Part shown: positions 3,801 through 48,100 of the stretch, piece by piece
How the letters are laid out: every line of letters begins with the position of its first letter
Numbering within the stretch: position 1 is the first letter of the stretch
Origin: Harmothoe impar
Taxonomy: Eukaryota; Annelida; Polychaeta; Phyllodocida; Polynoidae
Direction of reading: 5' to 3'
Assembly (NCBI GenBank): GCA_947462335.1
Contig: OX381710.1
Coordinates: 26,257,772-26,321,771, forward strand
DNA: 64,000 bases
The notes under the pieces: model-generated
What the model saw: the letters and a program-made list of their open reading frames with translations, nothing else
Database searches by the model: none
What the model was told of the DNA's origin: nothing
Translations under genes and position numbers: made by a program

Positions 3801-6800
3801 ATGAAACTGGATGGAATTAGGAAGGATGACCTTTGCAAAGTGAACCAGGCATTGAAATAAATAATTATTACATACCAACAGCTGCCATACCGCCAGGTGG
3901 CAGACTGGCCTCCTGGACACATCGCCCTCTCCAGTATGCTGCAAGAACCGCTTCTTCTGCGGTTAGTCCTCCATCCGCGTATGCACACCCCAGCTCTCCG
4001 ACTGAGTGACCCACAATGCCCTCTGGTCGGATACCCAGAGATGACAGCACATCCACCATAGCCACCTAAAATTGAATTAGGAACTAAATGTTAACATCAG
4101 TTTCTTTTACACAGAGACATGTGCACAGATAAGACATATTTGTTTAGTTTTATGATATTGATGCAAATCATCCCAATTCCCATTGTTTTTGTTTAAAGAT
4201 TAAAAGAACTTGTATCATTAGAAAGCACACCGTAATGTGTACCTACCTGGATCGCAGCAATGCCAACAAACGAATTGAGTGTGTTTTCAAACACGCGCTC
4301 ATCTCCACTCATTATCAGTTCTTGTAGCTTAACGCCATGTGGTTGGAGAGCTGCTTCTGAGCGAAGTATTGATTGGTGGAAGGCTTCAATTCCCATTAGG
4401 TCACGGCCCATACCATGCCACTGTGTTCCCATGCCAGCAAACACAAACCATACTGGCCGACCCTCTGCACCAGCACGCTGAAATTATGATATCACGGTTA
4501 TAGAATTATGATATCACATGTGAATACGGTAAAACCTCGGTTATAAGCCAAACTTTATTTGCTTTGAGCCAAATTTTAAGCCCCAAACTCCCATTCGGCT
4601 TATATGCGAGGTTTTAATAATGTAGGACCATAGTGAAAACCAATTTCAAGCACTTTTGTTATAGGCCAAATTTTTACTCTCAAACTCACATTCGGCTTAT
4701 AACCAAGGTTTTACGGTAGGTCATTTCAACTAGGTGACTTTTTTCTTCTTCCAAATTTTAGTCTAAATGTGTACAACAGAATTGACATGATTATGGCTTA
4801 GATTTCATTAAAAATTGCATTAATCAATTTGATTTTTTTAAATCCTATATAACCAGACATCTGCAGTGTTTCAGCTGAACAATGAATTGCTTCAAAAGGC
4901 TGATATGAATAAAGAAGACAACCCAACATTGGTAGTACTGTAGATCAATACTAACCTGCACATCTACAGCCTTGTTGTCATGGTTCAGTAGTGCATAACC
5001 CCTGTAGGGATGTGATTGTGCAGGGACTGTGGCAGACTCTTGGACTACTGCCTGCAAGTCAACATTTCCAGGCTGAGCCTGAATAGCTTCAAGGCCTCCT
5101 TTTACTGCCTCCTGGGTCCGTCCAGCCCATGTGACCAGTCGTGGAATGGCTGAGGCAGGGTGAACAGGTGTGACTACAGAGGCGTTGGAGCGGAGCAGGA
5201 CATGGACATTAGAGCCACCAAAACCGAAGGAGTTGATTCCAACATAGCCGCCTTGCCATGGTGTACGCTCAGCTACAACCTGTTTATAAAATAACACATT
5301 CAGATTATTTTCCGTCAATTAGTTTTTGCAAGTTCATCATTGGCTGAACTAAAACAAGAGTTTGATGCTACAATGTATCTGACAAGAACAGAAAGACAAG
5401 ATAAATGGTTAATAAACAAAGGCAAACATATCTACAAATAAAGCTCCACAAAACAAGCGAGTGCCTATTATTACCTTTAGACGTCCATCAGCTAGCGCAG
5501 GAATGTCAGGGTTGGGCGAGTTGTAATGAAGGTTTGCAGGAATGTGACCATCCTCCATAGCAATTAGTACCTTGGCCAAAGCTGCCAGACCTGAAAGGGT
5601 GAAATGTGAAATACAATATAGAATTCAAAACCTGTTTATAAAAGCCTTTTTGGGCCAACCTTTTGTTTCTTTTTATACAGTTTTATAGTTAAAGTAGCTG
5701 TCTTGATCACAATATTGAGTATTAAATATTCCAAGATTTCAGTGACATCATATATTATCGTAATTTTCAGTTCTCTTGGAGTCAATAAATTACACCATAC
5801 CTGAGGTAGGCTCAGGGTGACCCATGTTGGACTTGGTAGACCCAATGAGTAGTGGTCCCTGGCGGCCTGCACAGAACACATCGACAATAGCCCCAAGTTC
5901 TTGAGGGTCTCCTGCCTTAGTTCCTGTTCCGTGAGCTTCCACGTATGATACGTCCACTGGGTTAACCCGAGCTTCTGCATACACAGACTGAAGCAGGCGC
6001 TTCTGTACCTCACCACTGGGGAAAGTGATACCTAGTGAAAAGAAGTAAAATCTGCATGAAAATATTTCTCATATTTTTTCATTTCGAATAATCACCAAGT
6101 GCTTGGATATTGTTTATTGCCAATAATCTTTCATGATCTTAAGGTAGTAGACTCACGTTAAAATTAGATTTCACAGGGCCGCACAGGGCTATGGGCATCA
6201 TGCTCTTGGTCATCATTATACATGAATAGAGCCCTGGTAGGCAGCTGCATTCAAGCATCATGCCGACCCTACGGTGTTGACATGCGCCAACATGGTCTAC
6301 ATGATGCAGCATTGCTCCTCTGGTGAGTTACTAGCCTAGGCTGCATTGGTACATCCTGACAACCAATATTTCCTTTTAGTGACATGCCTTCTTTAAAACG
6401 TTAGAATGCTGTTCTGTTTGTAATATAATGATATATATTAGGGACTGCCCCAAACGTCCCTTTCTTTTACTGTGGAATAGTGCGTCTCTAATACACGGGG
6501 CGTAGGGGTTCCCCCAGTCTAAGATTATGGTGGGTAATCTAGGTTTAAGAGTATAATTATTTAACCCACGGTGGGCGGCTAAGACAAAGGCTTCACACGT
6601 TGGGTATATCGTATACCCGAGGGTTAAGTCAGATAGACGACACCTGGCCAGGGTTCTTCCACATACCCACTGCCCACTGGTCAGCGACTCGGTGTATAAC
6701 ACCTCGTCTCTACCTGGTGGGGCAGTGGGTATATGGAAGAACCCTGGCCAGGTGTCGTCTATCTAACACATACACGAGATACGTGGCCCAGGTTCTAGGT

Positions 6801-27141: not shown

Positions 27142-30100
27142 CTGTAAAAAAACACCACATTGATGTATTGTTGATGCTATTTTGAATATAGATTTACACA
27201 CACAGTAGAGCTTAGACTGTGTTTTTTTTAAATTCAGTTTTATTTGGTCTAGGTTTACAAGTAATCAATGATTGCGTTGTTCAGCCACGAAGTAACCTAG
27301 AGCGAGAGTGAGGCAGCTCCACACCAATCATTACTTACAAATAAATGGAATTACAAATCTTACATTTCGCCTACTTTAATATGACATTCTAAAAACCAAT
27401 AACAGATACACATACTAGTATTTATCTGAACTAATAACAGTAGCAACAGATTAGAAAGAATAGATGTCAGTGAGTATCAACTGCATTAACTACACAGATA
27501 ATCTTTGAACTCCAGAACTTAGGGAGTGGTCATTTTTTAACAACAGGGGTTGGGTCGGTGGATTTTCGTACGAGCGGGTCGACATTTTTTGGTCCCCCTT
27601 CGGTCCCCCCCCCCAAAGGCAAGTTGAAATTGAACGTGGCCGACCCCTTTGAGCTATAGTAATGCACTGGCTTGTTTTTTTTTGCTAAAAAAGGGGGCAA
27701 TTTTTCAAAGGGTACACATTTTTTAGGTCCCCCCAAATCCACCAACCCCCCTCCTTTAGTCAATACTGACGAACTTAGTTAATACTATCAGGTATAGTCA
27801 GTAATGCAGACAGACCTTAGTCATTCCATTTCTTTTAGTATTTTTGCATATCATTCTTCTGATCAATATCCCTATGACTAACCTGGAATAACCACTACAG
27901 CCTAAGGCCCGGAGCATTTAGATTATCAGTGTACACATTATCTACGATGTTTGGATCAATTTCTCACCGATTCTGGAGTCACATTGGATTTATATCATTG
28001 TATAATCATCAATTACGCAAGAAAGAGCAATCTCCCGAGGTACTTGGATATTTGCATACCTCCCCGTAATCGTAAAATAAAGCATATACCAACCGCAATC
28101 TTAAAGGTGTTAAAATGAGTTCGATTAAAGATGTGTTATCGATTTCAAAAAGAGAAAAATTTAAAAGAAGGGATTCAGGGGAGAGCTGAAATATACATAC
28201 AACAGGAGCAGTTTGCATGCGTCCAGATTCTTTAGTTTTTTTTGGTAAGGGAGTGTTCATTATTTATGGCAGAGAGGGGGGGGGGTGAGCATTTGAGGGG
28301 GGGGGGGCAATTTTTTTAGGGGTATTCAAAGGGGGGGGGGCTTTTTTTTTTACCCTATTCTTAGGGGGGGGGGCCTTTTTTTTAAGGGGTATTCCTAAAA
28401 ATGTCACGAAGTTAGTACATTGAAATGTCGCGAATTTTGGTAACAGCTTGTGTTATATTTTACCAAATTACGTCAATATTTTCTAAAATTTTCTAAAATT
28501 TTCCTCAAACTCCCAGCAAATTTCTCACTGCATCACTTTTGACACTCAGAATAGCCCACCGTTTTGTCAGTCTTCAAAAAAGTGCCGGCCTCATGTAAGC
28601 ACTGAGGGTAAGGAAAGCGGTGTCATGGCGGTACAGAGGTAAGCAGCACCCAGGAGCGCTCCGGCTATATTGTTGATTTAGTGCTATAATAGAGAGTGTG
28701 GAGTCACCATACTAGTCCAAGAACCCGATAAAGGTTTTGTGGTCACTATAATAGCAACTAATAGCCAATAGTGTGGTTACTTCTCACATACCATACGAAA
28801 ACTGTCGACTGCACCGCCCGCACTGACCAGCCCCGGCCACCGGCTACACAACAACATGGCGACAGCAGAGAGATCCGAGGTACAAGACCTTATCAAGGAG
28901 CTGTCGTATTCAAAAACCAGTACAGGAGAACCTACCTTGAACGCAAGGATGGGGACAGCACTACAACATCTCATGCAGACCACCATGGCGCTGGAGGAAA
29001 CGCAGGAGGCATATAAAAAGTCTCTGGAATTTTCCCAAGGTGAGGTGGATACGTTAAAAGTGTTACATAATGACCTGTCAACTAAGGTAGACGGACTGGA
29101 CAGCAGGCTGGCCAACACAGAGAGGCAAGTACGCGTCAATACAACAGAATTAAAGGAACATCTCACTGCTATAAATGTGCTCGACCACTCCTCCAGGAGA
29201 CGGAACCTTATAGTAGAGGGGGTGGAGTATAACAAGGATGAAGACACACGTATGGTTGCCTACACCCTATTCAAAAAGATCGACCCAGACCTAGAGGAAT
29301 ATGACATTGATATCACGTACAGACAGGGCCCCCCTACTGCCAGATCCAGAAAATGAGTTGTTTAAGCTGAGGAATGATAGCCGCGACAAAATTCTGGCCA
29401 GAAAGGGTACCCTCAGTAAAATGCCAGAACATAGGCATATATACATAAGTGAGGACACCAATATAGATATAAAGAAACAGAAAGCTGACGTACAGGCTAT
29501 TGCCAAACTAGCATATGAGTCTCATCTAGAGGTTAAACCAAGGGGGCGTGGCCTACTCTACGAGGGTCGCTACTATGCTCATGCTGACTTTAATGAACTA
29601 CCTGCGTCACTGAAGCTGGCAAGAGCAAGAACCCTTGTGACAGACTACATTGCATATCACTCAGATCTAGCTCCACTGAGCAATTTCTACACGTGTAAAA
29701 TAGTTTAAAATGGCAACACCTTCTCTTCAGTGGAACAAGCTTTAGCATGGGAAAAGGCTGAGTTTGCTGGTAGAGCCGATAAAATGCAAGACATTAAGGA
29801 TGCTTACACAGCCCTAAAGGCAATGAATATTGCGAAGCACATCATATGTCCAGAGTGGAAAAACATCGACGAGAGCCGCCTGTATGATCTTAATGTGCTT
29901 AACCCTTTCGTGCCCAGAACTCCAAAAGTGCGCGCTTTTACACCTATATATGTTGAAGAGGGCACCCTAGGTGCTCTAGTGCTCAGATTGAGATGATTCT
30001 AGGACTGAATTTAGCACAGTTTCACAGGCCTTCTAACGGTACCAGGTATCCTATGGTAGTATATGTGTGTATGTTGATGGGATGCTAGACTAGAAGATAT

Positions 30101-33100
30101 TATGAGTTTAAAATTGCCTTAAAAGCACTAAAAGTGCGCGCTCTGGCAATAGTAGGACAGATAAAATACAGAAATATTGGTAAAATAGTGAAAATATTGA
30201 TGAAAAATAAGTAAAAACCCTTTTTATTGGTTTTCTCTCGGGATTCCAATTACAATGTTGTTACCCTTCTATTTCCATTAGATATGCCTTCATTTGGAAC
30301 CCCAAAAGAACGTTTTCTAAGCCAATGTAGGCTTTTACCAACTTAAAGAGCAAAGTCTGGCCTTTAGATGGCAATATTGATCGATATCAGTGAAAAGAAC
30401 GTTTGTGGTTGTCATGGCAACCCAAGTTGGAATTTTTTTTAAATAGTGTTGAAAAGGGCACTTCAATAGCTTTCAGAAAATATAATATAAAGCATATGTC
30501 AGAACAAAATATTGATTGGTTACCCAATCTACCAATTGTAATGTAAATAAACTTGACTTTCATGATAGTTCTGGGCACAAAAGGGTTAAGTACACTCAGA
30601 ATGATGAACTGAACGCTGTACTCAAGATGTCAGGCTCCAGGGTGCTTCTGGAAGCAACCAGTGATTTATACTGGGGGGCCGGGGGGGGGGGGGGGCTAAA
30701 ATCCAAGGCCGTGCTCAAAGGCACCTACAAGGGGAAAAATAGGGGGGGCCGAATCCTGATGGATGTAAGGCTCCACATATTTGGAATAGCTATCCCCCCC
30801 TCCCCCAACGATAGAGCTCTTCAAACTGGCGCTAATCAACAACAAGTGACTGCCACGCCCCCTCCGCCACAAGCACAACCAGCGACCACGCCCCCTCAGG
30901 ACAGCCCAGCAGACCGAGCAGCCACTGCAGCCATAGCAAGGAGTGCATCACCCACCTTGCAATGGCCGAACCAACAACAACAGCAGCAACAACAACTACA
31001 GCAACAGCAGGACGCAATCCAACAACAGCCACAACAACAACAACAACAACAGACTGTGCAGCCCGTGGTAGCAGATGGGTCTGATGAGACCATGGTTAAA
31101 ACACCACAAGTGACAATCGCCCAACTACAACAACAACAACGTGACATGCAGCAGCAGCCACGTGACAAGCCGCAACAACAGCAGCCGCAACAACAGCAGC
31201 CGCAACAACAACAACAACAACAAACGTCACCACAGCCCCCCAAGACTGGACCTATTGAGTTCAACCTGTCTCCACATGTAACCACACCGAAGCCGCAAAG
31301 ATACTCTATGAGAACTAGGCCAGAGGGAACGGGAGCAGCCGCAGGGACAATGCCCTCCTCCAGTGTTGAAGGAAAACCCCCAAAGGCTAAATCTGAGACG
31401 AGGAAATTGCAACAACACATAGCTAGTCTCTTCACTCAGAGCAGCAAGAAGAAAAAATGACAATTGCCCATCGTATAACCCGTAAAAACGCTGTGCACAT
31501 AATATGTAACACTCATTAATTTTAAGTAATGAATCAATTAAAGGCTAAAATATCAAAGTATATACATACAATGTAGCAAACACATTCTGTAATTGCCAGG
31601 GCGGAGTAGACAGTCCCCCTAGGGTACAAGGTGGTTTAGGCCGAGAGGGCTAACGACCCTGGTCTAGTTGTGAAACCAACCAAGAGACGCGAAATCAACA
31701 TGATATATTTGACCCAGTAAGGGGGCGACAAGCTCCAGGCCCTATGAATGATTGCATTGACCCACTGAGACACTGCCAGAATATATAAACAGTATGACAA
31801 GGTTATAGCCTACATATAGGAGTTTCGTTAATACATTGATAGTACCGGTATTAAATGTATTCTTTTATATGGTTTTACATTATATATATAATTTGTACGC
31901 TTGTAATAATTTTTTCTAATGAATTATGTTCCTAAAAGGGATTACAACCTCTCATGTACGGTAGATATCTATTAACTCCACTCAAAAGTTATTACATGTT
32001 GATTCCGGGGCGCTGCCGACTGTCATGTACACCAATATAAGTAGAGCTAATTATAATCATCCCATACTAGGTATCATGCATGTCATCATCATAACAGATA
32101 TAAAAAACACTCTCTGTATATCTCTCCATGAGTTTTTTACATGATATAACCAACGAGAAGGGTCTTCTTTTTAAGTGTATGAACGCTAGAAGCATTTATA
32201 AGAAAAAAAGCACTGTTTCTCTGATTGTTAATAGTGATGTGACAGGCGTATGTGAATCATGGCTACAGCCATCCACCTCTGACATGGATATGGTCATTCC
32301 AGGCTATCAATTTGTAAGATTAGACAGGAGGCCTACCATTAATAAGAATGCTGGGGGACTCATGCTGTACATGCGTGATACATATATAGCTGAAGTCGAC
32401 ATAGACTCATCATGTATAAACAAGGAGTATGAAATTCTATGTGTAGATATTTTAATAGGAATTATTAAGTATAAAGTGTATGTCTGCTATAGACCACCTG
32501 ATCATGATGTTGATAAGGCTGCTATATATAACAAATTAAGGGATCTCAAGAAGAATGTTTCAAAAAATAGAAAGATAATAATGTTAGGAGATTTTAATAT
32601 CAACCTGTTTAACGACAAGGATGTTGAAGAAGCCGGAGTGAATAACTTTTGTACAGAGAATGAGCTCTTTCAGCTGATCGACACTCCCACGCGTCTAGTA
32701 TCTAACACGCTAATTGATCACATATATACTAATGTACATAATATAGCTAAAACTGGGACAATTGATTTTCATATTTCTGATCACTCGCCCATATACATGC
32801 TGCTCAAATGTAAACGCACTAAGATTGCAAAAAAAACCATTCAGGCCAGATCTTATAAGAAATATGACTTTTTACACTTTAAAAATAGATTGCAAGCGCA
32901 TGAATGGCAAGAGGTTACAAATATTAATGACCCTGATATTATGTGGGATCGTATAATTAATGTAATACAAGATTACTTAGATATTGATTGTCCTTTAAGA
33001 ATGATAACTATACCTGTCTTTACACCTGAATGGATGTCTCCTACTGTTATTAAAGCCATGGACGATAGAGACTATGCTTATAGAATTGTTAGACGTTATC

Positions 33101-36100
33101 CTAATGAGGACAATTGGCGTATAGCTAACTTCCACAGGAATAATGTAGAAGAAATGATTTTTAATAGTAGGAAAAATAAGGTCCAGACTCTGTTAATACA
33201 TAGGAAAGACGATCCTAAGAAATTCTGGGAAGGGGTGCGTAAACTCCTACCGGTAAAGGCAGCGACCATCCTATTGAAATTAAGGGATAAAACCACAGGT
33301 GATATGGTACCCCCTGGAGGCTGCGCGGCATATATTAACAGGTTCTTTTCTACCATTGGGAAAAAGCTAGATGAACTGCCACCTGCTCCTGCATTTACCG
33401 GTACTAGACATATTAATGCCCCTGAGGTAGACTGTGACCTGCTATACCCGATTGGATATTTGGAATTAATTAAATTAATTAAAGGTATTAAAATTCATAA
33501 ACCATCTGCTATTAAGAATATAAAGAGCCATGTTATTAAGGATGCCTTTCTATCTATTCCTGAAATAATTCTTTGTTTATTTAACAAATGTTTAAGCACT
33601 AAATATTTTCCTTCAGTATGGAAGACTGCCACTGTTGTGCCGCTTCCAAAAAAAGCAAATTCCTTGGATGTAAATGACTTAAGGCCTATTAGTTTGTTAG
33701 CTATACCTGGTAAATTATTAGAAAAAATCATCTGTAATAGGTTACAAACTCACATGTCGATATACCACCTTCTCACTGACCACCAGCATGGATACCGTAA
33801 ATGTCATTCTACACAGTCAGCTATTAGTGCACATATTTGTAATATCCTAGATAACATAATAATTGATAAACCCACCTTTTCTATATATTTAGATTATAAA
33901 AAAGCTTTCGATACTGTCTCACATTCTATTCTTTTTCCAAAAATTTCTAATTTTGGACTTAGCAAAAATACATGCGAGTGGTTTAGGAGTTACTTGACTG
34001 GTAGATCACAGTGTGTTAAGGCCAATAATATCTTATCACACAAGCTTCCTATTACTTTTGGCGTACCCCAAGGGTCCGTATTAGGCCCTGTATTATTTTC
34101 TATTTATGTAAATTCTCTTCCTGATTTGTATAATTATGACATAACCTTGTATGCCGATGACGCGGTGATCTCGACAACAAATGAACATTGTATGCATGAT
34201 GCCCTTAGCCTATTGTCTGAATGGTGTGTTACCAATAGTTTAACCATTAATGAAAAAAAGACAAAATGGATGCTCTTTAATAATATTCACCATGTAAATC
34301 CAACCTTTAAACTTAATGGCATTGATATTGAAAGGGTAACATGCTTCCAATATCTGGGGCTATCTATTGACCCTGATCTAAAGTTTATTCAGCATCGAAA
34401 AATTGTTAGTTGTAATCTCAGAAACAAGGTTCATCAATTAGCTAATATTAGACATTTTGTGGATATCCTCACTGCCTTGGATGTATATAAGAGCATGGTC
34501 TTACCGACTTTTGATTATGTGGATTACATGTGGGACAGGTTGAATGTGGGGGAGAACAAGCAGCTTCAGTACATACAAAACAAATCCCTGAGAATAATTT
34601 ACAAAGTAAAATTAGAAGAAAACCCTACTATGAATACAATTCAACTACATAATGAGAGTAAATGTATGTTCTTAGATAAAAGGAGAAAAATACATTTACT
34701 CTTTTATGCCTTTTCTTTAGCAAAAAATCCACTTTACATTGACGATAGGCCTATTGCAACCAGAAGACACGTTGGTAAAAGAATGCTTGTTCCGCCCACC
34801 CTAAAACCACTAGTCACACGCAGCGCTCGATATAGGGCAGTAACCATATGGAATGAATTAAAGGCAAAGTATACGTTAATTGAAGACCTTTCTGAGTTTA
34901 AAAAGGCAATTAAGTTAGATATTGACACCTGCTTTATGTAAAAAGTAATATATTTTATTGTCATATTAGTTCCTGTCACATGTTCTCATCTCATCTCATC
35001 ACTCATCGTCAACTGAGCTAATCAGAGATAGATTTGTTTACTATACTTAGCTCCTTTGAGAGAATGTACATGATTGCTATGACATAATTTTTATACGTTG
35101 CATCCACTGAGAGACTTACAAAAGAAAGAGGTCCTGATGGAAGAACGGCAACGCGCCGAATCATTGTAATTACCCATGTAATTATTTACCTGAATAAACA
35201 CAAAAAAAAAAGGGAGCTTCCAATTTATAAGCACTGGGGCCCTTAAACTCAACGGTATGTAAGTCAAGTGTCTGAGGTTTGACTATTATCACTCACCAGC
35301 GAGTATCATGAGACGTTTACACTAAAACACCTCACAAATGGATGTATTTGTTGCAAGGTAGTAAATTGTAGGTAAAAAAGTGCCCAGGATTAAATGCATA
35401 CAATTAGTAGACACCAACATCGTTTTTGTAATAAAGTTGAAAACAATCCAGGGTGAGGGGGGGGGCGCTTTTTTTTCAACCTATTCCGAGGGGGGGGGCC
35501 TTTTTTTTTCAACCTATTCCGAGAGGGGGGCCAATTATTTTTGACGTATTCGATTTGCTAAACGCTCACCCCCCCCCTGCCATAAATAATGAACACTCCC
35601 TAAGAACCAAGGTTACGGGTGGTATTCTTTTTTTAGATTACAGGATCTTAAGATTATGCGAATGTCCAGGCTCCTTGAGAGTACATCCCTATGAGCATCA
35701 ATTACCTAACACTAACAGATTTAGCGCTTAACTCTCTTATATATATAGTCTGACTTGTGTACTTACCGTAGAACTAGGAATGGCTATCAAGTCTCGGCCA
35801 GTACGCCTTGGCTTGAGAGCTGGAATCATTATACGAAATATCAGCAACAGACTTGGTGGAGTCAATTGTGTAGTGAGAGGCAATCACCTGGTATTAACAA
35901 TCTTTTTTTTCTGGACTAGTGATACTGCCTGTTGTTTATAAAGAAATATCATAAACCTTTAATCCTATCGGCAATGTTTGAGTGCGGTCAGTTTTAGTCA
36001 CCACTATTCATTCAAATAGTAATAGCTACCTTATGGCAACATGGTTTTAGGTTACTTACATTCTGTAGACCCTTCATCCACATTCTCCTTGAGTCTGGAA

Positions 36101-39100
36101 AGATAGATTGCATATCAAATTATATAAATATCATCAGATTATAGGAAGTGAAGAGAAACTGTAACACACAAAAGTCGATCTATTGAATTGTCAAACGGGA
36201 TATACGTTATCTTACATCAAACGTTATATAACGTTTTGCCACAATAAGTATATATATATTATGTGTATAGAAATATATAAAACATATATATTATATGTAT
36301 AAGATATATAAAACAAATAGATAGGTGTCCAGTTGTCTACCTTTTGGAGGTCTGTGTGAGTTTGATGGCAAGTACAATGATGGTGGCTGTCAGTGCGGCA
36401 ATGATCAGACAGAGTATAGTCATGACCGCCTTCCCCGTCGGTGTCTCCAGCCATGGAGTCTCAGGAGGCGGAGTTGTCGGTGCCTCAGTAGTCGTTATTG
36501 TGGTATTATAGGGATTTTCAACTGAGACAATACCAAAGGCTGCAAGGTCTCCACCTGTTAGTTGATTACAAATTAACATATTCAATGAGGGGACAACAGG
36601 TGAGGTAGGAGGGGCATGGTGACGGGAGGTGTGGGAGTGGGAAGACAACAGGAGAGGTAGGAGGGGCATGGTGACGGGAGGTGTGGGAGTGGGAAGACAA
36701 CAGGAGAGGTATGAGGGGCATGGTGACAGGAGGTGTGGGAGTGGGAAGACAACAGGAGAGGTAGGAGGGGCACGGTGACGGAAGTGTGGGAGTGGGAAGA
36801 CAACGGGAGAGGTAGGAGGGGCATGGTGACGGAGGTGTGGGAGTGGGAAGACAACGGGAGAGGTAGGAGGGGCATGGTGACGGGAGGTGTGGGAGTGGGA
36901 AGACAACGGGAGAGGTAGGAGGGGCATGGTGACAGAAGTGTGGATGTTGGAAGAGAACGGGAGAGGTAGGAGGGACATGGTGACAGAAGTGTGGATGTTG
37001 AAAGACAACGGGAGAGGTAGGATGGGCATGGTGACAGAAGTGTGGGAGTGGGAAGACAACGGGAGAGGTAGGAGGGGCATGGTGAAGGAAGTGTGGGAGT
37101 GGGAAGACAACAGGAGAGGTAGGAGGGGCATGGTGACGGAAGTGTGGGAGGCGGGGGGGGGGCAGGAGAGTTAGGAGGGGCATGATGACGGAAGTGTGGG
37201 AGTGGGAAGACAACAGGAGAGGTAGGAGGGGCATGATGAAGGAAGTGTGGGAGTGGGAAGACAACAGGAGATGTAGGAGGGGCATGGTGACAGAAGTGTG
37301 GATGTTGGAAGAGAACGGGAGAGGTAGGAGGGACATGGTGACGGAAGTGTGGGAGTGGGAAGACAACAGGAGAAGTAGGAGGGGCATGATGAAGGAAGTG
37401 TGGGAGTGGGAAGACAACAGGAGATGTAGGATGGGCATGGTGACAGAAGTGTGGATGTTGGAAGACAACGGGAGAGGTAGGAGGGGCATGGTGAGGGAGG
37501 TGTGGGAGTGGGAAGACAACAGGAGAGGTAGGAGGGGCATGATGAAGGAAGTGTGGGAGTGGGAAGACAACAGGAGAGGTAGGAGGGGCATGGTGACGGA
37601 AGTGTGGGAGTGGGAAGACAACGGGAGAGGTAGGAGGGGCATGGTGAAGGAAGTGTGGGAGTGGGAAGACAACAGGAGACACAGGCCGAATGAGAGCCTT
37701 CTGGTAGAGATGGTCTGCAGGGGGTGGTAGTATTAGGGTAAGGCCCGACACTCGTATGGTACGGTCATCTAGGCACGTAGACGTTGTACCTGTAGTGTTG
37801 TATAAAGCCAGTAGATGTCTCTGGTGTATAACAGGTCTGAGTCTACGTGCCTAGATGACCGTACCATACGAGTGTCGGGCCTTACCCTAATACTACCACC
37901 CCCTGCAGACCATCTCTACCAGAAGGCTCTCATTCGGCCTGTGACAGGAGAGGTAGGAGGGGCATGGTGACGGAAGTGTGGGAGTGGGGGGGGGGGCAGG
38001 AGAGTTAGGAGGGGCATGGTGACGGAAGTGTGGGAGTGGGAAGACAACGGGAGAGGTAGGAGGGGCATGGTGACAGAAGTATGGATGTTGGAAGAGAACG
38101 GGAGAGGTAGGAGGGGCATGGTGACGGAGGTGTGGGAGTGGGAAGACAACAGGAGAGGTAGGAGGGGCATGGTGACGGGAGGTGTGGGAGTGGGAAGACA
38201 ACAGGCATTGTGTTGGAGCACTAGTACTTCGTTTTAAAAGAGTTTCTTTTACTATAGAAATGCGGAAGAGAAAGTCACAATCTTAAGAATTAGTTTGTTA
38301 TGAACAAAATTCGTTATAATAGAGTTTGTAATGACGAGGTTTTACTGTATAATAGGAACTGACTGACGTATTTATATGAAATTATCTTAAAGGTCTATGT
38401 GACACACTGTAGAGCTGTGGGATGGGGTCTCCAGTAGGGGTAAGGAGTAGGTTGGTCAGCTCGTCCGCCGTCATGAATGTCAGGTCTCCGTCATCGTTAG
38501 AGATGGTTGCATACGCTGACACCTGCGTCTGAACAGGGAATGACCTAGCCACACAGGGATGTATATTAGAACTATAGTTGAATATCATTAAATTGGCATA
38601 GTCCGATGATTAGGGCTCAAAATCTGATTTTGCTAAAACTGAACCAGAATCTCCAAAATGACCAAACTTCATGTCCTACTTACTCAATGATATTTTATTG
38701 TACTCCATCTTTCAAATATGATATTATAATGACCTTTTGAACTCATTTAAGTAGAATTTGAAATATGGAAAATATCGGACCATGTCACTTTAAGGCCTAC
38801 AGAGCTGTTCAAAGGTGAGAAAAAATTTGAATTATGCTGCCTCTTTCATTATAGGTATTAGATAGTCTTAAATAAGTACCAAACTGACAGAATAAGTAGT
38901 AATGGCTCAAACCTACGTTGTGGTCTGGAGTAATTTGCGACGTCCTGAAGCTGAAGTTGTAGAAGTTGCTTGATAAATCCCAATACTCACTACTGTATTT
39001 CCTGATAAGCTTGCAACTAGACTCGCCATACGAGTCCTGAAATTGACCAAGGGAAATTCTCTTAAAGGCACAGATCTCGGTACCCCTCCAGCGACAGTCG

Positions 39101-42100
39101 GAGTGGAGCCGGGACAGGTACTCAGCCCTATATATAGGGGAGCTGGGGGTTTAACTGTCTACAACATAAAGACTGGACGTGTGATTAAACATCAGGGGTG
39201 GGTTGTCAATGAATACAACTTAATGAACAATTTGGCTTTTGGTATTATTGGGTATTTTCATTACTTGTTTAAAAAAACTGTTCCCGTATGGTTACAGTTT
39301 TGCAGTCATAGAGAGTAACCTTGCCATATGGTTAGAGCTTTGAAGTCATAGAGAGCAACCCTGCCGTATGGTTACAGTTTTGCCGTCATAGAGAGTAACT
39401 TACTCTTGCTTACTCAGTTGGACGTTGGATGTATATTTGAGAGATATCCCATCAGAACTGATGGAGTAGAAGATGATGGCAATCTGTATGTGCTGTGAGA
39501 GGTCAAAGTAAAAGCCTCCATTTCGAGAATCCTATATATGATAATCCCCCCAAATGAGGAAACCATAACCCTCTCATGAAGGGAATAACCCCATATTCCT
39601 GAGAAAACAGACAAGAATCCATGGATAGAGGCCACAAAAATCTTGGGTGCCACAGATACTCGTGTCATTTTGTTAATGCCTCTTTGAACAGTTGTAATCT
39701 GAAAGGGTTCTAGTCGATAAAATCCATTATTTTCCTGTCTAGGAGGATGTGAAGGATTTGACTGATATGTGATGTCATACTTTCAACACTTTAGTACCAA
39801 TGTAATTGTATTAGACCTGGGTTACAATCTATATTCAATATAATGATAGGCCTTATTGTACTGCTTATCACAATATGTGTATGGTCTTTTATATGATACC
39901 GTACTAGGGAGGGGGGGGGGGGTGTCGGCAGATTTGTGACATACTTTTCTAGGGGGTGTTTGGGAAAGTGTGACAAAGTGTGACATGGGGGTGGGGGGGG
40001 TCTTCAAAATGGCCAAAAAAGGCGTGACATACTAAATGGATCACCCCTAAGAATTTACTTACTGAAATGTGTTTAGATTGCTGTTGAAGTTTATCACGCT
40101 GACCGTGAGTCCAAATACGATGACATTTGATGGTCCATATGTCGAAACTTTGAATGTGACAATTTTGGAAGTCCGTGCAGGATTACCTCCATCCGTAGCT
40201 CTGACCGAAAAACTGTAGGTAGTACCACAGCTTAATACCTTGGCAGTTGCCTTCTTTCGCAAATTTCCTATTGCGGAAGAACAAAGAGAAACCATTTATA
40301 CACTTGTGTAAACTTAGAAGCCAATATGTATTCATCAAATACAAGAGCTTACTATAGTTTCATTTTGCTTTTATAGACTATTCAATTCCAAGCCAAGCCT
40401 GGTTCATATGAGGTCCCCCTACCAATTTCACCTGACCAGGCTGACAGGGGCAACTGGTTTCCGTCTATTATAACCACATGGGTGGTTACTCAAGATCCAG
40501 GCTTGGTTGCGCCCCCTATTTCTTCTACACATTTTAATGTAAATGGGTTCAATACTCTCAGTAAATTGCCTTTTAACAGCTCATCTCCTTTCCTAAATTT
40601 ATGGATCCGCCCCTGCATGTTACCCTTCCCTCCCAAAAGTGAAGAACTGCCAAAATCTGACTCTTCTGCCATGTGTACTTTAGAGCATAGGCATGTTGTT
40701 AAGGCTAAAGGGAAGATTCATGAGGAATGGTGTAAATAGCACTAGCGGACATACTCTCCTGGGAACGTGGACAAGAAAATCTTTCCAATCTTAAAAGCGG
40801 TAATCTTAAAAAAGTTTCCCTCCACATTTTAAGATAATTTTAAGATAATAACATTTATTTCAGATTGTCCTAGCATGACAATCTTAAATTGAAGGTTTCA
40901 AACACCAGATGGCACCACTGTATGAAACCTGGCGCAGTTGTCCATAGTTGTGTTTGATATCAGTTTTGAAGAAAGAAAGAAAAGAAAGAAAGAAAAGGGG
41001 TTTCAGGGGCAGAGAAAAACGGTAAGCATAAGTGGCGCCATCTAGAGCGGGTTTACCTAGGCGATAATCGACTTTAAGATGATCGCTTTTAAGGTTGGAA
41101 AGATTTTCTTGTCCATGTTCCCAGGAGAGTCTGTCCCGACGAGCAGTGTAAATAGGCCTCACCCGCTTGTAGGGCAGCTTTAATTGGGGGAGGGAGAGGA
41201 AATCTATTAAAAATAACTCACCTGCAGAATCTATTTGGAACAGTGGTTGGTACTGGAGGTCTAGTACTGTATATGTGAGTTGTGCATTAATGCCGTCATC
41301 AGCATCAGTTGCCACTGCCCGGAGAATGTTAACATTACTGTTAACTGTACATAGGACACTTGCTGTGTAGATGTTCACTGAGAATGTTGGATCATTGTCA
41401 TTGATATCAGTAACCCTGATTGTTACATCGACGCTGCCAGTTGTTGTGATGACAGTCCCAGGCACTGTCATCTGTACCTGTTGAAATGACAATCCCATTT
41501 TCCACAGGGTTAGGTTAAACATTTAACTGAAAATATAAAGCTTACTGAGATTTCCCTCTGATTCCTCCATTTTGATATGTGTTGACATTTATTAAGATGA
41601 CAGATTGGTATTGGATTAAGTACTGGTTGAGTTGGACTAAAACTGTTGACATAAAGTGAGTGTACATATAATTAAAGCTCCACAATGACACCTTCAACTC
41701 ATAGTAGACTAAAACAGCGCTACAAATGTGATTGGCAAACACTTGGTGAGAATGCTGCTTTAACCACGGGTATGCTTTTACCTGGCATTCAATATCATTG
41801 CCGTGTGTCTCACGGTCTAGTGCCTTCTGAACAGATATGATACCCGAGGAAGAGCCAACCTTCAGATAGGTTTTACAATCTGCAGAACTGACAAAGGAGA
41901 AGGTGGCCCCAGAAGAGCCTGGGATAGTGAGAAGATGTTTATCCACAGCCGTGTTTTCAGGATATTCTCTCAGATAGCGCATACTGAAACTACAGTTGTT
42001 TCTGACGTGAACCTGCAAATAGGCCAATGACAAGAAAAGGGCTCAAATCATATACTTTTAGAAATAGTGAAATATCATGCACTGTGGTGTATTTTGGAGT

Positions 42101-45100
42101 TCTTAACAGTGGAAAATCAGTGGTAAATTCTTAAATGTTTCCCTAAATTACGATTTCGAAGAACTGGTCAACTTTTATTAAACATTGTGTTTGATCTTTT
42201 AAGTTTTCAAGCTAAGGTTGTGTTGTGTTCATTGATACATATCCTTATAACTGTATAACCACATAGAAAATTGTGACTTCCTGTATAACTGAAAGAATCA
42301 CCTGTACCAAGAATAGAGATTGAAATGACATTGACAACGAAATTTGTATTATGGTTAGGTGGATGGATCTCGGGATGGACTTGATTATTTAACCAAGCAT
42401 ACTGTATAGAAGGTATATTATTACTAAGATAACATTCCTAGTACAGTAAAACTTCGCATATATGGGCTGTGGCTAGCACACAAGTCAGATCACCAGTGCG
42501 GCTTATAGGATCAGGGCAAAGTCAAGGTGCAGCTTTTACAGTATAATTACTACAGTATTAAAGTTGATCAGACCCCCTGTCAGGCTTATAAGATATTTCC
42601 AAAGTCTAGATGTGGCTATAATACGCGAATTCGGCTTATACGCGAGGTTTTATGGAATGTTGTACAGCACTTACCGTAACCGTCTTGCAGTCGTGTCTGA
42701 CAGGTACACCGGCATCCTTTACACAAAGGTAGAACAGCTGACTTCCAAAGCTTCCTTTCAGCTCTCCATTTGTCTTGACTACTCCACTTGCAGCATTCAC
42801 CGTAAAAAATGTGAACAGCGAGCCTGAAGCCGGACTCACGTACCACGAGAGTCTCGCATTGCTCCCCGTGTCTGCGTCAGTCGCGGTTGGAGTGAACAGG
42901 GTGGTGCCGGATGCAGTCGGGTCAGGGATACAGTGAGTGATCGGCCCACTTATGATCGGGTTATTGTCATTGACATCTGTCACTGTTATAGTTACCTAGA
43001 AATAAATGTGCCATAGATGCTTTGAAAATTGTATGAGTTTTAATGGGTTATTTTAAAGGTAAATGGAGATGGTATTTGATGTTAATGAGTTAATATTAGA
43101 GGGCTTGTTTTTGGGGTAGATTTAAGGTCTGTTGTGCCTTCCTAGAAGATGGACTGCATTGGCTTATAACTAATTTTCACAAACAATGGTATGTACTTTT
43201 GACATATGAATTGATACACAACTCTTGAAGTGGTGACTTACAGTTGCAGTAGTAATGAGCGGGGGATTTCCACTGTCCTTTGCCATAACTTTAAGTATAT
43301 GAGTGGCTGTTTTTTCCCGATCCAATAAAGATGGATTATCTACTACAATGTGCCCATTTGTTGCGACTATGCCAAATGGCGATGCCTCAATTGCATATGA
43401 TACCTGAAAAATTAAAATAGTTTGTAAATTTGAATATTCAAAGGTTACATTCCATTAGTTAGTCCTTCCAACATTCCGTTATTAACCAACACAGTTTACG
43501 CAATATATGCATCCGCAACCAAGATAAATACTCTCATTGTGCTAGACATATCATACACCTTCCATTCCATACATCTTTTAATTTGGGATTGCCTCCCATT
43601 GCTGAGGTTGAAATGGATTTCCACACCTTATGACCGTTCCACCCACCAAGTGCCCCTTATTTGGTTTACCTTCGGAGGCCTTATTTCTGATTCTCAATGT
43701 ACTTAAGCACTACCCTTTGCACTGAAATAAGACCAGTCTAGCTCTCTTCTAATCTATTATATCCTACTATAGAGTAACAAAGTCAATACAATACCGTTCC
43801 ATTCTCCCTGAAGTCTCTATCAGTGGCAGACATGGTGAGAACATGCTGCCCTGATGATGCATCCTCCGGTACTGATGCTGTTAGATCTTGCCCAGTAACA
43901 AAGACTGGGCTGTTATCATTGACATCTTCTATGTGTATGTGAAGGGTTGCCAAATTTGTCAGTGGCGGCTCTCCATTGTCTGTCACATTGAGCGTGGCTG
44001 TATACCTGTACAATCACAATAACTTACTCAAATGAATTATGTAGAATAGTTATGTTCCTCTGCCTAAACATATCTCCAGTGGCCCTAGTGACTAGACCAT
44101 GCCTTTGTACTAGTGTAAAGTGTAACAGGTTTCCAGGGGGAAATATCTGTTAAACGTCATCGATATTGGACAATGTACTAGTAATATTAGATACCCATGT
44201 AATTAACATCAGTGTCATACCAATTTCTTTCCTATGATACAACAGTTTCCCCGTGTTGTGAGTGTGAGGTTTGGGAATCTCACATTAATTGTTTAGCAAG
44301 TCACGATTATTTCTTGAATAAGTATAAAAAGGGTAGGAAGAAAGTTGAGGTCAGATAATCCAAATTTAAAAAAAGGAAGATTTTGTGACAAATGTGTCCA
44401 GAAAAGGTCATGAAAAATGGAAACTATATTCACCTGATTTCTCATATTACAATTAGCATTTCAGTGACTGCAATACTTACGCGGTAACTGCTTCCCGGTC
44501 AAAAGCCTTGTCGATGCTGAGTTGAAAGGTGTTCCCAAGGAGATTAACAACACCAATATGGTCATCAGAGTCGTTGAAGACTCCAAAGCTTAGCTTCGCA
44601 TTCATGTACACGTCTGCATCATAACCAGCACCCTTCATAACAGAAGTGCTGGTCTTCCCCTCTGGGAAACTAACAAACATACGAGGATGGTTAAAAAATG
44701 GCCGGTTGTCATTGGAATCAAGAATGTTAAAAGTCACAGTTGTCGTTCCAGACAGTCTTACTGTACCTTTGTCCACAGCTCTGACTATCAGAACACCGGT
44801 TCTATTAGTCTCATAATCAAGAGCTGGAGATGCAGATGTGCTGATGACCCCAGTTGTGATGTTAATAACAAAAGAACCATCTGCGTCCCCACCGATGACA
44901 AAATACTCGAGGTCAGCATTGACGGTGGAGTCGTCATCGTAAGCTGTGACTTGTAGTACTTCAACACCGCCTGTTATGTTCTCGTACACAGATGCCGAAA
45001 AGGTCTGATTGAAGTAGGGACAGTTGTCGTTAACATCGGTCAGGGTAACATTGATGGTGACCATTGTACTCCTCACGCTGCCATCACAACAGTTGTCCGA

Positions 45101-48100
45101 TGCTGTAACATTAACGTTGTACTCCCTAGGCCCCTTGTCATAATCAAGTACCTCTGCCACTTGGAACATCCCTGTGTCAGGCTGTACGATGAAGGCTGTG
45201 TCACCATTAGATGCAGTGTCAAATGTGACCTCACCGTGACATCCCTTATCGCGGTCAGTGGCTGTCAGATTCAGTATCGTGACACCAACAGCAGTGTCTT
45301 CAGCAATACTAACAGTTGTAGTCAGACCACTGGTAAATTCAGGATCGTATTCATTTGTACAGATGACAGTGACAACAACGGTTGTGGTCGCAGTTTGCGG
45401 TGGCATCCCTCGGTCGATTGCTTTTACTACTAGTCCATACACACTCTGGTTCTCACAGTCAAGTACAGCATTAACTACAATACTGTTGTCATTGAAGTAG
45501 AAGTCAGTGGAACCCTGACTGGGCACAATACTGAAGGTGTGATTGGCATTAAGCCCCTCATCTGCATCTGAGGTAGAGAGAGTGAGTACAACAACCTCTG
45601 AAGTAGAGTTCTCCATGACTTCTGCAGAATAGTTGGCAGCTACAAACCGGGGACAGTTGTCATTCACATCAGTGATGGTGATGATTGCACTGGTCTCGAC
45701 GTATAAACCTGAGTCGCTCGCTCTAACAGTCAAATTATATTCGGCTGTAACCTCTCGATCCAGAGCCCCATTGACTATGAGAACGCCTGATGATGCATCA
45801 AGGCGGAATGCATCATCTGTGTTACCACTCGTTATACTCCAAACAGTGACACCATCAGCGGTTAGCGCATCATCAGCATCTGTGGCATTCATGGTGAGGA
45901 CGACTAATCCGGCTGAGGCATCTTCAGAAACATCTGCGATATATCCACCTGAGGGTTCAATAATCACCGGAGGGTGTTCATTCACACCTTTTACAAGGAC
46001 TCCAACATAAGCTGTTCCTGTAAGTTCAGCTGTTGGACTCTGGTCGGTAGCAGTTACGGTTAGAGCATAACTCTTGGTGTTTTCAAAGTCTAAGCTCGAG
46101 GAGAGAGTTATATGCCCACTAACTTCATCTATGGCGAATTTCCCTTCGGCATTTCCTGCACTGATATTGTAGGTTATGTTGCTGTTCATGCCTATGTCAA
46201 TGTCGCTGCAGTTGACGTCAACCAGTGACGTGCCAACGGTTGTGTTCTCTAACCAAGTTACAGAGTAAGGACTGTCATTGCATAACGGAGTGTTGTCGTT
46301 CTCATCCAATACTGTCACATTCAGTGTCGTGGTTGCGGATAAAGCGCTGTCTGTGGCTGTGATCTCTAACGAGAAATAATCGGTTGTTTCCCTATCCAAT
46401 CTTTTCTGAACGGTGACAGCTCCATCTGACTCCATTGAGAACTTTGCTTCATTATTTCCGCCGGTAATTGCAAATGATACAGTGTCACCTCTATCCTCAT
46501 CTGTAGCTGAAATGTTTGCGCCAATCGCTTGTCCTAACGTATAACCTTCCGATATCGAAACAGTATATGATGGACTGCTAAATACCGGAGTGTGTTCATT
46601 AACATTTGTAATGCTTACTTGGGCGCTGATCTGTTCCGACAGGCCTCCTCCATCGCTCACATTAACAGCTAGCTGAAATAGAGTATGGGATTCGTAATCA
46701 ACTGCCGTGCTGTTTGACACTACTATCCCAGTTCCTGACACCTCAAATGCACCATTGTGGTTTCCACTAACTATTTCAAAAGTCAGAGCAGCATTGTTTC
46801 CTTCATCAGCATCAGAACAGTTCAGAGCAATGGAACTGAGCACTGTACCATTTGCAGAGTTTTCTGCTAGTATTTGATGTTGTAGGACTTGAGTACACAC
46901 TGGAGAGTTGTCATTAGTGTCATTCACAGTCACTGTGAGTGTGGCATTGGCTGAATTTGTTCCTACTTCCTCAACAGCGTTAACTGTGAGTGTGTAACTA
47001 GCAGTTGTCTCTCGGTCAAGGGAGGCTCGCACGGCTACATCCCCAGTGTCTGAGTCTATGATGAAATGTCCTGCACTATTCCCTTCTATGATGGTATGCA
47101 CCAACTTGCCATGTCCAGCCTGCACAGAGTCACTGTCTGTAGCACTCACAGTAGCAATTTGTGTACCTATAGTGGCATCCTCGCTTACAGATACTGCGAA
47201 ACTACTGCTGCTGAACACTGGGCCAGCCTCATTCACCGGAGTCACTTCCACCTTGAAGGTTACTGTAGCGCTGAAGGTGCCATCAGTGATGTTCACATAG
47301 CCTTCATAAGAAGTCACTCTTTCATAGTCAAGTGCACCTAGAATATCAAGATATGCCATAAGCTACTACAAAGTAAGATAAGGGAAGTGATGTATTTGAC
47401 AATCAGGTTTATGGATTATGCAAGCTACCAAAGTTTTTGAGATTTTCTTTGGGTCTGGCCTTAACAAATAAGAGGCCTATCTAGAATAGGCCATGCAGTA
47501 CTCAGTTCCTCAAAAACCGACCAATAGAATGCCCTAGATGTATTTAACGGTTATCTAAGGTTGTGAACTGTTGGAGCTCCTTAATGTTTGATCCATTTTG
47601 CACATGAATTCAAACCTGACCATCACCTACATTACTGGGTTTAGCCAACATTGCTCTGAAACTATGTATACATACATTGCTAAGTCATTATGTTCACAGC
47701 TTGATCGCCCATACAAAAACCCTTGTTTGAAAAATTGTTATAAGACCAGTTATAGAGAGAAATATGCATAAAACGAAGTAGTCCTACCTGCGGTTGATAA
47801 TTCACTCCCAACAACTGTGATGTTTCCATCATCTGGCGACACCACAACACTATAACTCAGCGTGTTATGCACTGCTGATATATCAGCGTCCGTACAATTG
47901 ATCGTGGTCAGGGTTGTCGCAGCTGTAAAGTGTACAAAGGTCGATTACAGATAAGAAAATTACCTAAAACATTGTTATAAAACACCTTATGTCTCCAAGA
48001 TGCGAGGTACAGCTCAATCGGCAGCTCTAATTCCTGACTTATGGTGGCTGATAAATCTCTCTTTAACAGATGCTGATTCACCCTTACACACAGAAAAGAA

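What the first reader, a model, noticed from the sequence alone, without database searches (positions are those of the whole stretch)
29676..30786. A LINE ORF1 protein fused to a NADAR (ADP-ribose-related N-glycosidase) domain
Seen: directly after an L1-like coiled-coil/RNA-binding region, the same ORF continues with LSNFY, NTFSSVEQA, EWK, KYTQNDEL, LLEATSDLYWGAG and GKNRGGRILMDVR, in the order of the NADAR/YbiA profile. Known: NADAR proteins are linked to ADP-ribose metabolism, and some remove ADP-ribose from guanine in DarT1-NADAR toxin-antitoxin pairs. Inference: a retrotransposon could use it to protect its RNA, cDNA or target DNA from a host ADP-ribosylation (PARP-like) defence. It sits in the protein that packages element RNA. 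I do not know whether this LINE-NADAR fusion has been described.
Basis: partly seen in the sequence, partly recalled or inferred. Interest (0 to 1): 0.92.

Follow-up and report, generated by a model that had tools for sequence, protein, structure and literature searches.

The report
Jumping gene carrying an ADP-ribose eraser
A broken copy of an animal jumping gene still spells out, in pieces and inside the protein that is predicted to wrap the element's RNA, a NADAR enzyme domain that keeps every tested catalytic residue, and this domain likely lets working copies strip ADP-ribose marks off their own RNA or DNA and so would blunt a host defence.

The parts
28859..29197 (+). ORF1 N-terminus and predicted long coiled-coil helix (frame 2); domain borders approximate, mapped from P0001
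   Evidence: tblastn P0001 2-167 = 28865-29362; P0001 model helix 25-112
29198..29459 (+). L1-type RRM (by homology), interrupted by one frameshift at about 29340-29366
   Evidence: frame 2 ORF ends at 29356, tblastn moves to frame 3 at 29367; P0001 model E115-E198 matches LINE-1 ORF1p
29460..29645 (+). L1 ORF1p-like C-terminal domain (CTD)
   Evidence: P0001 model H202-H246; LINE-1 ORF1p trimer match reaches residues 256-259
29646..29898 (+). NADAR domain, N-terminal part, with an in-frame TAA at 29706-29708
   Evidence: PF08719 12.6 bits on 29709-29993; tblastn P0001 170-348
29899..30589 (+). inserted MITE-like element, TTAACCCTTT(C/T)GTGCCCAGAA inverted ends, TTAA at both borders (one TTAA belongs to the target)
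   Evidence: absent from P0001
30586..30786 (+). NADAR domain, C-terminal part (EA..D..WG.G and GKN..G..LM..R), with a poly-G expansion
   Evidence: PF08719 32.1 bits E 1.6e-7 on 30516-31457; tblastn P0001 348-427; G runs
30787..31460 (+). Gln/Pro-rich ORF1 tail ending in a lysine run
   Evidence: P0001 also has a low-confidence Ala/Thr/Gln/Pro-rich tail
32128..34941 (+). ORF2, 937 aa, endonuclease + reverse transcriptase, open
   Evidence: PF00078 E 7.1e-37, PF14529 E 2.1e-8, PF03372 E 1.9e-6 on 32104-34938; P0006 79%, P0007 59% identical over 100%
35193..35211 (+). AATAAA followed by A10, possible 3' end of the LINE
   Evidence: no convincing target-site duplication

Best explanation
This is a decayed copy of a non-LTR retrotransposon whose ORF1 has a NADAR domain fused behind a region predicted to be an L1-type coiled-coil/RRM/CTD module, and in working copies the domain likely acts as an N-glycosidase, carried in the element's RNA-protein particle, that would remove ADP-ribose from nucleobases of the element's own RNA, cDNA or nicked target. 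Shown: the fusion in uninterrupted relatives, the kept catalytic residues, and NADAR as the best conserved ORF1 domain between the window copy and its relatives. Predicted: the fold of two relatives (AlphaFold). Inferred: that ORF1p trimerises and coats the element RNA as human L1 ORF1p does, which places the hydrolase on the RNP; that its substrate is base-linked ADP-ribose, as for characterised NADARs; and that the pressure is a host ADP-ribosyltransferase (guanine-specific CARP-1/pierisin-type enzymes or PARPs).
Against: No activity was measured, no host ADP-ribosyltransferase was sought or found, and the host species is unknown. Another NADAR activity is on riboflavin intermediates, the one TIGR02464 is named for, and a preference for soluble ADP-ribose derivatives has been proposed for viral NADARs. 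This copy is dead in ORF1. That P0001 and P0007 share a contig rests on equal length and source (5515, ena), not on a contig that I read. A single origin of LINE NADARs is neither shown nor rejected: p-AU 0.166, but only 3% of 200 bootstrap trees have one clade.
Confidence: 0.45

Rival explanations
1. The NADAR domain acts on soluble ADP-ribose/NAD-derived signals or on proteins of the particle (ORF1p, host factors) rather than on nucleic acid.
For: [quoted passage not shown] ZAP restricts LINE-1 (PMC4441479, PMC4423928, seen as listings only; that ZAP is PARP13 is recalled).
Against: Covalent fusion to an RNA-binding module would place the enzyme on nucleic acid; characterised NADARs act on guanine-ADPr in DNA.
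Confidence: 0.25
2. NADAR serves as an RNA-metabolism or binding module, as in nematode SNA-3, helping RNP assembly or RNA processing, with catalysis secondary.
For: [quoted passage not shown] The Ectocarpus paper suggests processing of RNA intermediates.
Against: All six tested residues are kept in 8 of 8 LINE rows. In SNA-3 itself mutation of such residues impairs function, though its authors leave open an indirect effect.
Confidence: 0.2
3. The domain is a passenger: a captured NADAR gene fragment next to or inside a dead LINE, not part of any functional ORF1.
For: In this copy the two halves are in separate ORFs and each half alone is below the Pfam cut-off.
Against: P0001, P0002, P0003, P0004, P0005, P0089 and P0090 carry NADAR behind the RRM-type region in one frame with the catalytic residues kept.
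Confidence: 0.03
4. ORF1-NADAR and the ORF2 at 32128-34941 belong to two different insertions.
For: ORF2 is open over 937 codons while ORF1 has a frameshift, a stop and an insert; 667 bases separate them.
Against: The best ORF1 relative and the second-best ORF2 relative both lie on an ena contig of 5515 bases, enough for 571 + 940 codons; same strand and LINE order. None of the other six fusion proteins' contig lengths recurs in the ORF2 list.
Confidence: 0.1

Closest known systems
Tx1-clade LINEs of Crassostrea gigas with NADAR in ORF1 (PMC12477816, passages read)
   Same: LINE ORF1 protein with a YbiA-family NADAR domain
   Different: The passage seen gives no architecture or residues. The ORF2 here is not L1-like: 50.7 bits to a human L1 RT segment, rank 53 of 81 scored, against 248.6 for P0087. 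No Tx1 ORF2 was on hand; that Tx1 belongs with L1 is recalled. The Gln-rich C-terminal tail is additional to the six shorter fusion proteins found here; the oyster ORF1s were not seen.
Ectocarpus Gypsy LTR elements with NADAR in Pol (PMC12477816, passages read)
   Same: retrotransposon that acquired NADAR
   Different: LTR element; domain in Pol, not in an RNA-binding ORF1p
Human LINE-1 ORF1p (2yko, 2ykp, 2ykq)
   Same: coiled coil, RRM, CTD order and predicted fold
   Different: no NADAR domain
DarT1-NADAR toxin-antitoxin and stand-alone NADARs (8BAU, YbiA 2B3W)
   Same: NADAR fold and catalytic residues
   Different: stand-alone or operon partner of a toxin; not fused to a retrotransposon protein
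NADAR in animal RNA virus polyproteins (PMC9503650, passages read)
   Same: selfish RNA-copying element carrying NADAR alongside its replication machinery
   Different: positive-strand RNA viruses; not sequence-compared here

Membership tests
NADAR (PF08719 / TIGR02464, YbiA type) | score above curated cut-off | tested here: met
   window read-through 61.8 against 35.1; P0001 84.1; P0001 75.8 against 73.7 for TIGR02464. Each window half alone is below the Pfam cut-off.
NADAR (PF08719 / TIGR02464, YbiA type) | catalytic residues | tested here: met
   E43, K50, E125 equivalents and YbiA-type W, D, W in 8 of 8 LINE rows; in the 14 other rows five positions are 14 of 14 and the last W is 12 of 14
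NADAR (PF08719 / TIGR02464, YbiA type) | fold | tested here: met
NADAR (PF08719 / TIGR02464, YbiA type) | ADP-ribosyl or N-glycosidase activity | not testable with these tools
   needs an assay
non-LTR retrotransposon (LINE) | ORF2 with endonuclease and reverse transcriptase | tested here: met
non-LTR retrotransposon (LINE) | L1-type ORF1p (coiled coil, RRM, CTD) | tested here: met
   on P0001 and the A3 profile, carried to the window by homology; by Pfam alone Transposase_22 reached only 18.3 bits in P0005, below its cut-off of 22.4, and was not listed for the window pieces or the other fusion proteins scanned
non-LTR retrotransposon (LINE) | target-site duplication / 3' end | tested here: inconclusive
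   AATAAA-A10 at 35193-35211; only a 9-base repeat (28596 and 35228) found beside it
non-LTR retrotransposon (LINE) | many copies in the host genome | not tested
   The genome search did not complete
L1 superfamily (to which Tx1 belongs, recalled), judged on ORF2 | reverse transcriptase close to L1 | tested here: not met
   50.7 bits, rank 53 of 81 scored of 84; P0087, the one L1-like row, 248.6. No Tx1 reference was compared.
DarT1-NADAR toxin-antitoxin | adjacent DarT/ART toxin | tested here: not met
   no ART domain in the window's ORF1 pieces or ORF2, nor in P0001-P0005 and P0007; the rest of the window was not systematically scanned

The most novel reading that the evidence does not exclude
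Animal LINEs of at least two superfamilies share an ORF1-NADAR module and use it as a retrotransposon-encoded counter-defence: an RNP-borne eraser of base-linked ADP-ribose, the eukaryotic mirror of DarT-NADAR conflicts in bacteria and phages, implying that some invertebrates ADP-ribosylate the nucleic acids of their transposons.
Probability: 0.3. Interest if true: 0.88.

Novelty: new variant of a known kind. Interest (0 to 1): 0.66.

Why it matters
What NADARs do in animals is unclear, and guanine-ADP-ribosylating enzymes of clams and butterflies have no settled role against selfish elements. An eraser with its catalytic residues kept, built into a retrotransposon's packaging protein, makes a concrete prediction, nucleic-acid ADP-ribosylation as a transposon defence, that can be tested with a purified domain and a retrotransposition assay.

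Tried and rejected
Passenger or artefact reading: rejected by seven uninterrupted relatives. Intact siblings in the host genome: the genome search failed in all 12 tries, so species, copy number and a family consensus could not be checked. Related loci: P0001, P0002, P0003, P0005 and the ORF2 alignment A4 in viral contigs, and A4 in genome contigs, gave no relative. The alignment A3 was too diverse for that tool. Window piece 30516-31457 against phages: no match, though P0005 matches 713 phage records through its NADAR region. The profile search with A1 scored only the 7991 candidates sharing most words and did not return P0002, P0004 or P0005, so the number of fusion proteins is a lower bound. 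Origin of LINE NADARs: tree unresolved (1 of 19 inner branches starred; bootstrap not settled); six of eight LINE rows fall together, P0004 and P0005 among the others; one clade in 3% of 200 bootstrap trees, yet not rejected, p-AU 0.166. No animal-host or RNA-virus NADARs were in that tree. Congruence of RRM+CTD and NADAR identities: r 0.84, 11 of 720 permutations as high, only 6 rows. Target-site duplication: nothing convincing. ORF2 clade name: not assigned; that it looks CR1/Jockey-like is recalled, not tested. Papers: 10 searches; of what was listed and opened only PMC12477816 was seen to report NADAR in retrotransposons. Not every listed paper was opened, some lists were cut (22 found and 20 listed; 14 and 10; 74 and 10), and subscription journals and preprints are not covered. 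The tail translation was in the wrong frame and is not used; one search gives the window's tail.
Full report
OBSERVATION. Pfam NADAR gives 12.6 bits on the piece 29709-29993 (E 0.17), 32.1 on 30516-31457 (E 1.6e-7) and 61.8 on both joined with X (E 1.2e-16; cut-off 35.1); the piece 29295-29705 alone gave none. With ORF1 read through with X it is the only family at E 0.01 or better, 54.2 bits. So the domain is real, though in this copy it is broken.

HOW THIS COPY IS BROKEN. tblastn with the intact relative P0001 gives three collinear pieces: P0001 2-167 at 28865-29362 (frame 2), 170-348 at 29367-29900 (frame 3) and 348-427 at 30585-30809 (frame 3). There is one frameshift, at about 29340-29366 (the frame-2 ORF ends at 29356), a TAA at 29706-29708, and a poly-G expansion in the second NADAR half. 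The gap between the NADAR halves is an insert bounded by TTAACCCTTTCGTGCCCAGAA (29899-29919) and its inverted copy with one mismatch (30569-30589); 100 shuffles gave none. The empty site reads LNVLKYTQNDEL in frame, like LNLLKYRQSDDL in P0001.

RELATIVES. A search of 5.8 billion proteins with the read-through found five proteins at E 1e-5 or better, all with PF08719. The best, P0001 (571 aa, ena), is 46% identical over 96% of the query. A second search with alignment A1, which scored only its 7991 best candidates, also returned five, three of them new: P0089 and P0090 have NADAR, and P0091 has a coil and RRM-like stretch without it. That makes seven uninterrupted proteins with NADAR behind an RRM-type region; P0004 as predicted lacks the coil. 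The NADAR part is the most conserved between window and P0001: 0.60 against 0.35 (coil), 0.39 (RRM) and 0.51 (CTD). Against P0002-P0005 NADAR (0.31-0.33) also exceeds RRM and CTD (0.16-0.25).

CATALYTIC RESIDUES. PMC11543638 (abstract and passages) places E43, K50 and E125 of P. nicotianae NADAR at the active site. In E. coli C7 NADAR, K95 (the K50 equivalent) and D171 (the E125 position) are needed for hydrolysis; E88A (E43) had only a minor effect in vitro while E88Q was inactive, and substitutions of E88 and D171 failed to rescue from DarT1. 8bau is the P. nicotianae protein with ADP-ribose. PMC9303266 (abstract and passages) cites four YbiA residues; the homologues mutated in SNA-3 are of types E, W, D and W. 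I placed W, D and W by motif in the YbiA row. All six distinct positions are identical in 8 of 8 LINE NADARs, the window's dead copy included; in the 14 other rows five positions are 14 of 14 and one is 12 of 14. So these are marks of the whole family, kept in the LINE branch, not LINE-specific.

THE PARTNER ORF2. The 937-codon ORF2 at 32128-34941 has endonuclease and RT domains. Of 83 relatives the closest full-length ones are P0006 (79%), P0007 (59%) and P0008 (58%). P0007 lies on an ena contig of 5515 bases, the same length and source as for P0001; the two ORFs need about 4.54 kb. I take them as one element, but the contig could not be read. Against a human L1 RT segment the window ORF2 scores 50.7 bits, rank 53 of the 81 scored (of 84), while P0087 scores 248.6. 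In an RT tree without printed supports, rooted on L1 by choice (74 of 85 rows kept), it groups with P0006-P0009, and P0087 sits next to L1. So the ORF2 is not L1-like. If Tx1 belongs with L1, as I recall, it is not Tx1 either, but no Tx1 sequence was compared and no call named its clade.

ORIGIN OF THE DOMAIN. A tree of 8 LINE NADARs and 14 others (12 phage and plasmid rows, 8bau, YbiA) is poorly resolved. Six LINE rows fall together and P0004 and P0005 fall among the others; one clade appears in 3% of 200 bootstrap trees but is not rejected (p-AU 0.166), and the label is clustered beyond all 500 shuffles. P0005's NADAR reaches about 44% identity to plasmid NADARs of Pseudomonas and Cupriavidus. 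Several captures, or one old capture, are both open.

MECHANISM. Human L1 ORF1p is a trimer (titles) that coats L1 RNA (recalled). By homology this ORF1p would do so, which places NADAR on the element's RNA and near the cDNA. Characterised NADARs hydrolyse N2-guanine-ADPr. Animals have writers of that mark: pierisins in butterflies, and N2-guanine DNA ADP-ribosylation in six edible clams, with CARP-1 purified from one (PMC11209040, abstract and passages). That NADARs erase those particular marks is an assumption stated as such in PMC11543638. Two ZAP papers, seen only as listings, report restriction of LINE-1; ZAP being a PARP-family protein is recalled. I therefore favour erasure of ADP-ribose from the element's own nucleic acid; soluble or protein substrates and a mainly non-catalytic RNA role remain open.

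NOVELTY. PMC12477816 (passages read) reports NADAR in Pol of Ectocarpus Gypsy elements and, from Repbase, in ORF1 of several Tx1 LINE families of Crassostrea gigas. So LINE ORF1-NADAR is published in brief. What I found in no paper that I saw is the fusion with a non-L1 ORF2, the coil-RRM-CTD-NADAR architecture by structure, and residue-level retention.

LIMITS. The host is an animal, judged by cadherin repeats; the species is unknown. The asymmetry of an open ORF2 beside a broken ORF1 is unexplained.

Noticed in passing
window 29899-30589: TIR-bounded MITE-like insert with TTAA at both borders, inside the NADAR coding region; piggyBac-like by TTAA (recalled, not tested).
   Followed up: yes
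window 28248-28280 and 35569-35601: 33-base inverted repeat (94%) brackets the whole LINE, with similar G-run/T-run repeats inside each end; the LINE may have inserted into a DNA transposon, or two copies may flank it.
   Followed up: partly
window 28859-34941: ORF1 has a frameshift, a stop and an insert while the 937-codon ORF2 is fully open; chance, or different ages.
   Followed up: partly
window 36592-37679 and 37944-38205: 51-base minisatellite, 21 and 5 copies, with long overlapping ORFs in several frames and GC skew 0.393 in the 36001-40000 block.
   Followed up: no
window 54636-55103: 58-base tandem repeat, 8 copies.
   Followed up: no
window 44480-47362 (-): Large open stretch with 8 cadherin repeats. 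Other minus-strand ORFs look cadherin-like by eye; the one scanned, 40887-41522, matched no Pfam family at E 0.001.
   Followed up: partly
window 4848-5318 (-): Ketoacyl-synthase C-terminal extension (PF16197), probably an exon of a fatty-acid or polyketide synthase.
   Followed up: no
Prevotella phage Lak-B5 MK250024.1 245613-246467: tblastn match to P0005 covers residues 118-386, starting well before the NADAR domain (28% identity).
   Followed up: no
protein P0091: LINE ORF1-like coil plus RRM-like stretch without NADAR, on a 264-kb contig, E 4.6e-18 with the ORF1-NADAR profile.
   Followed up: no
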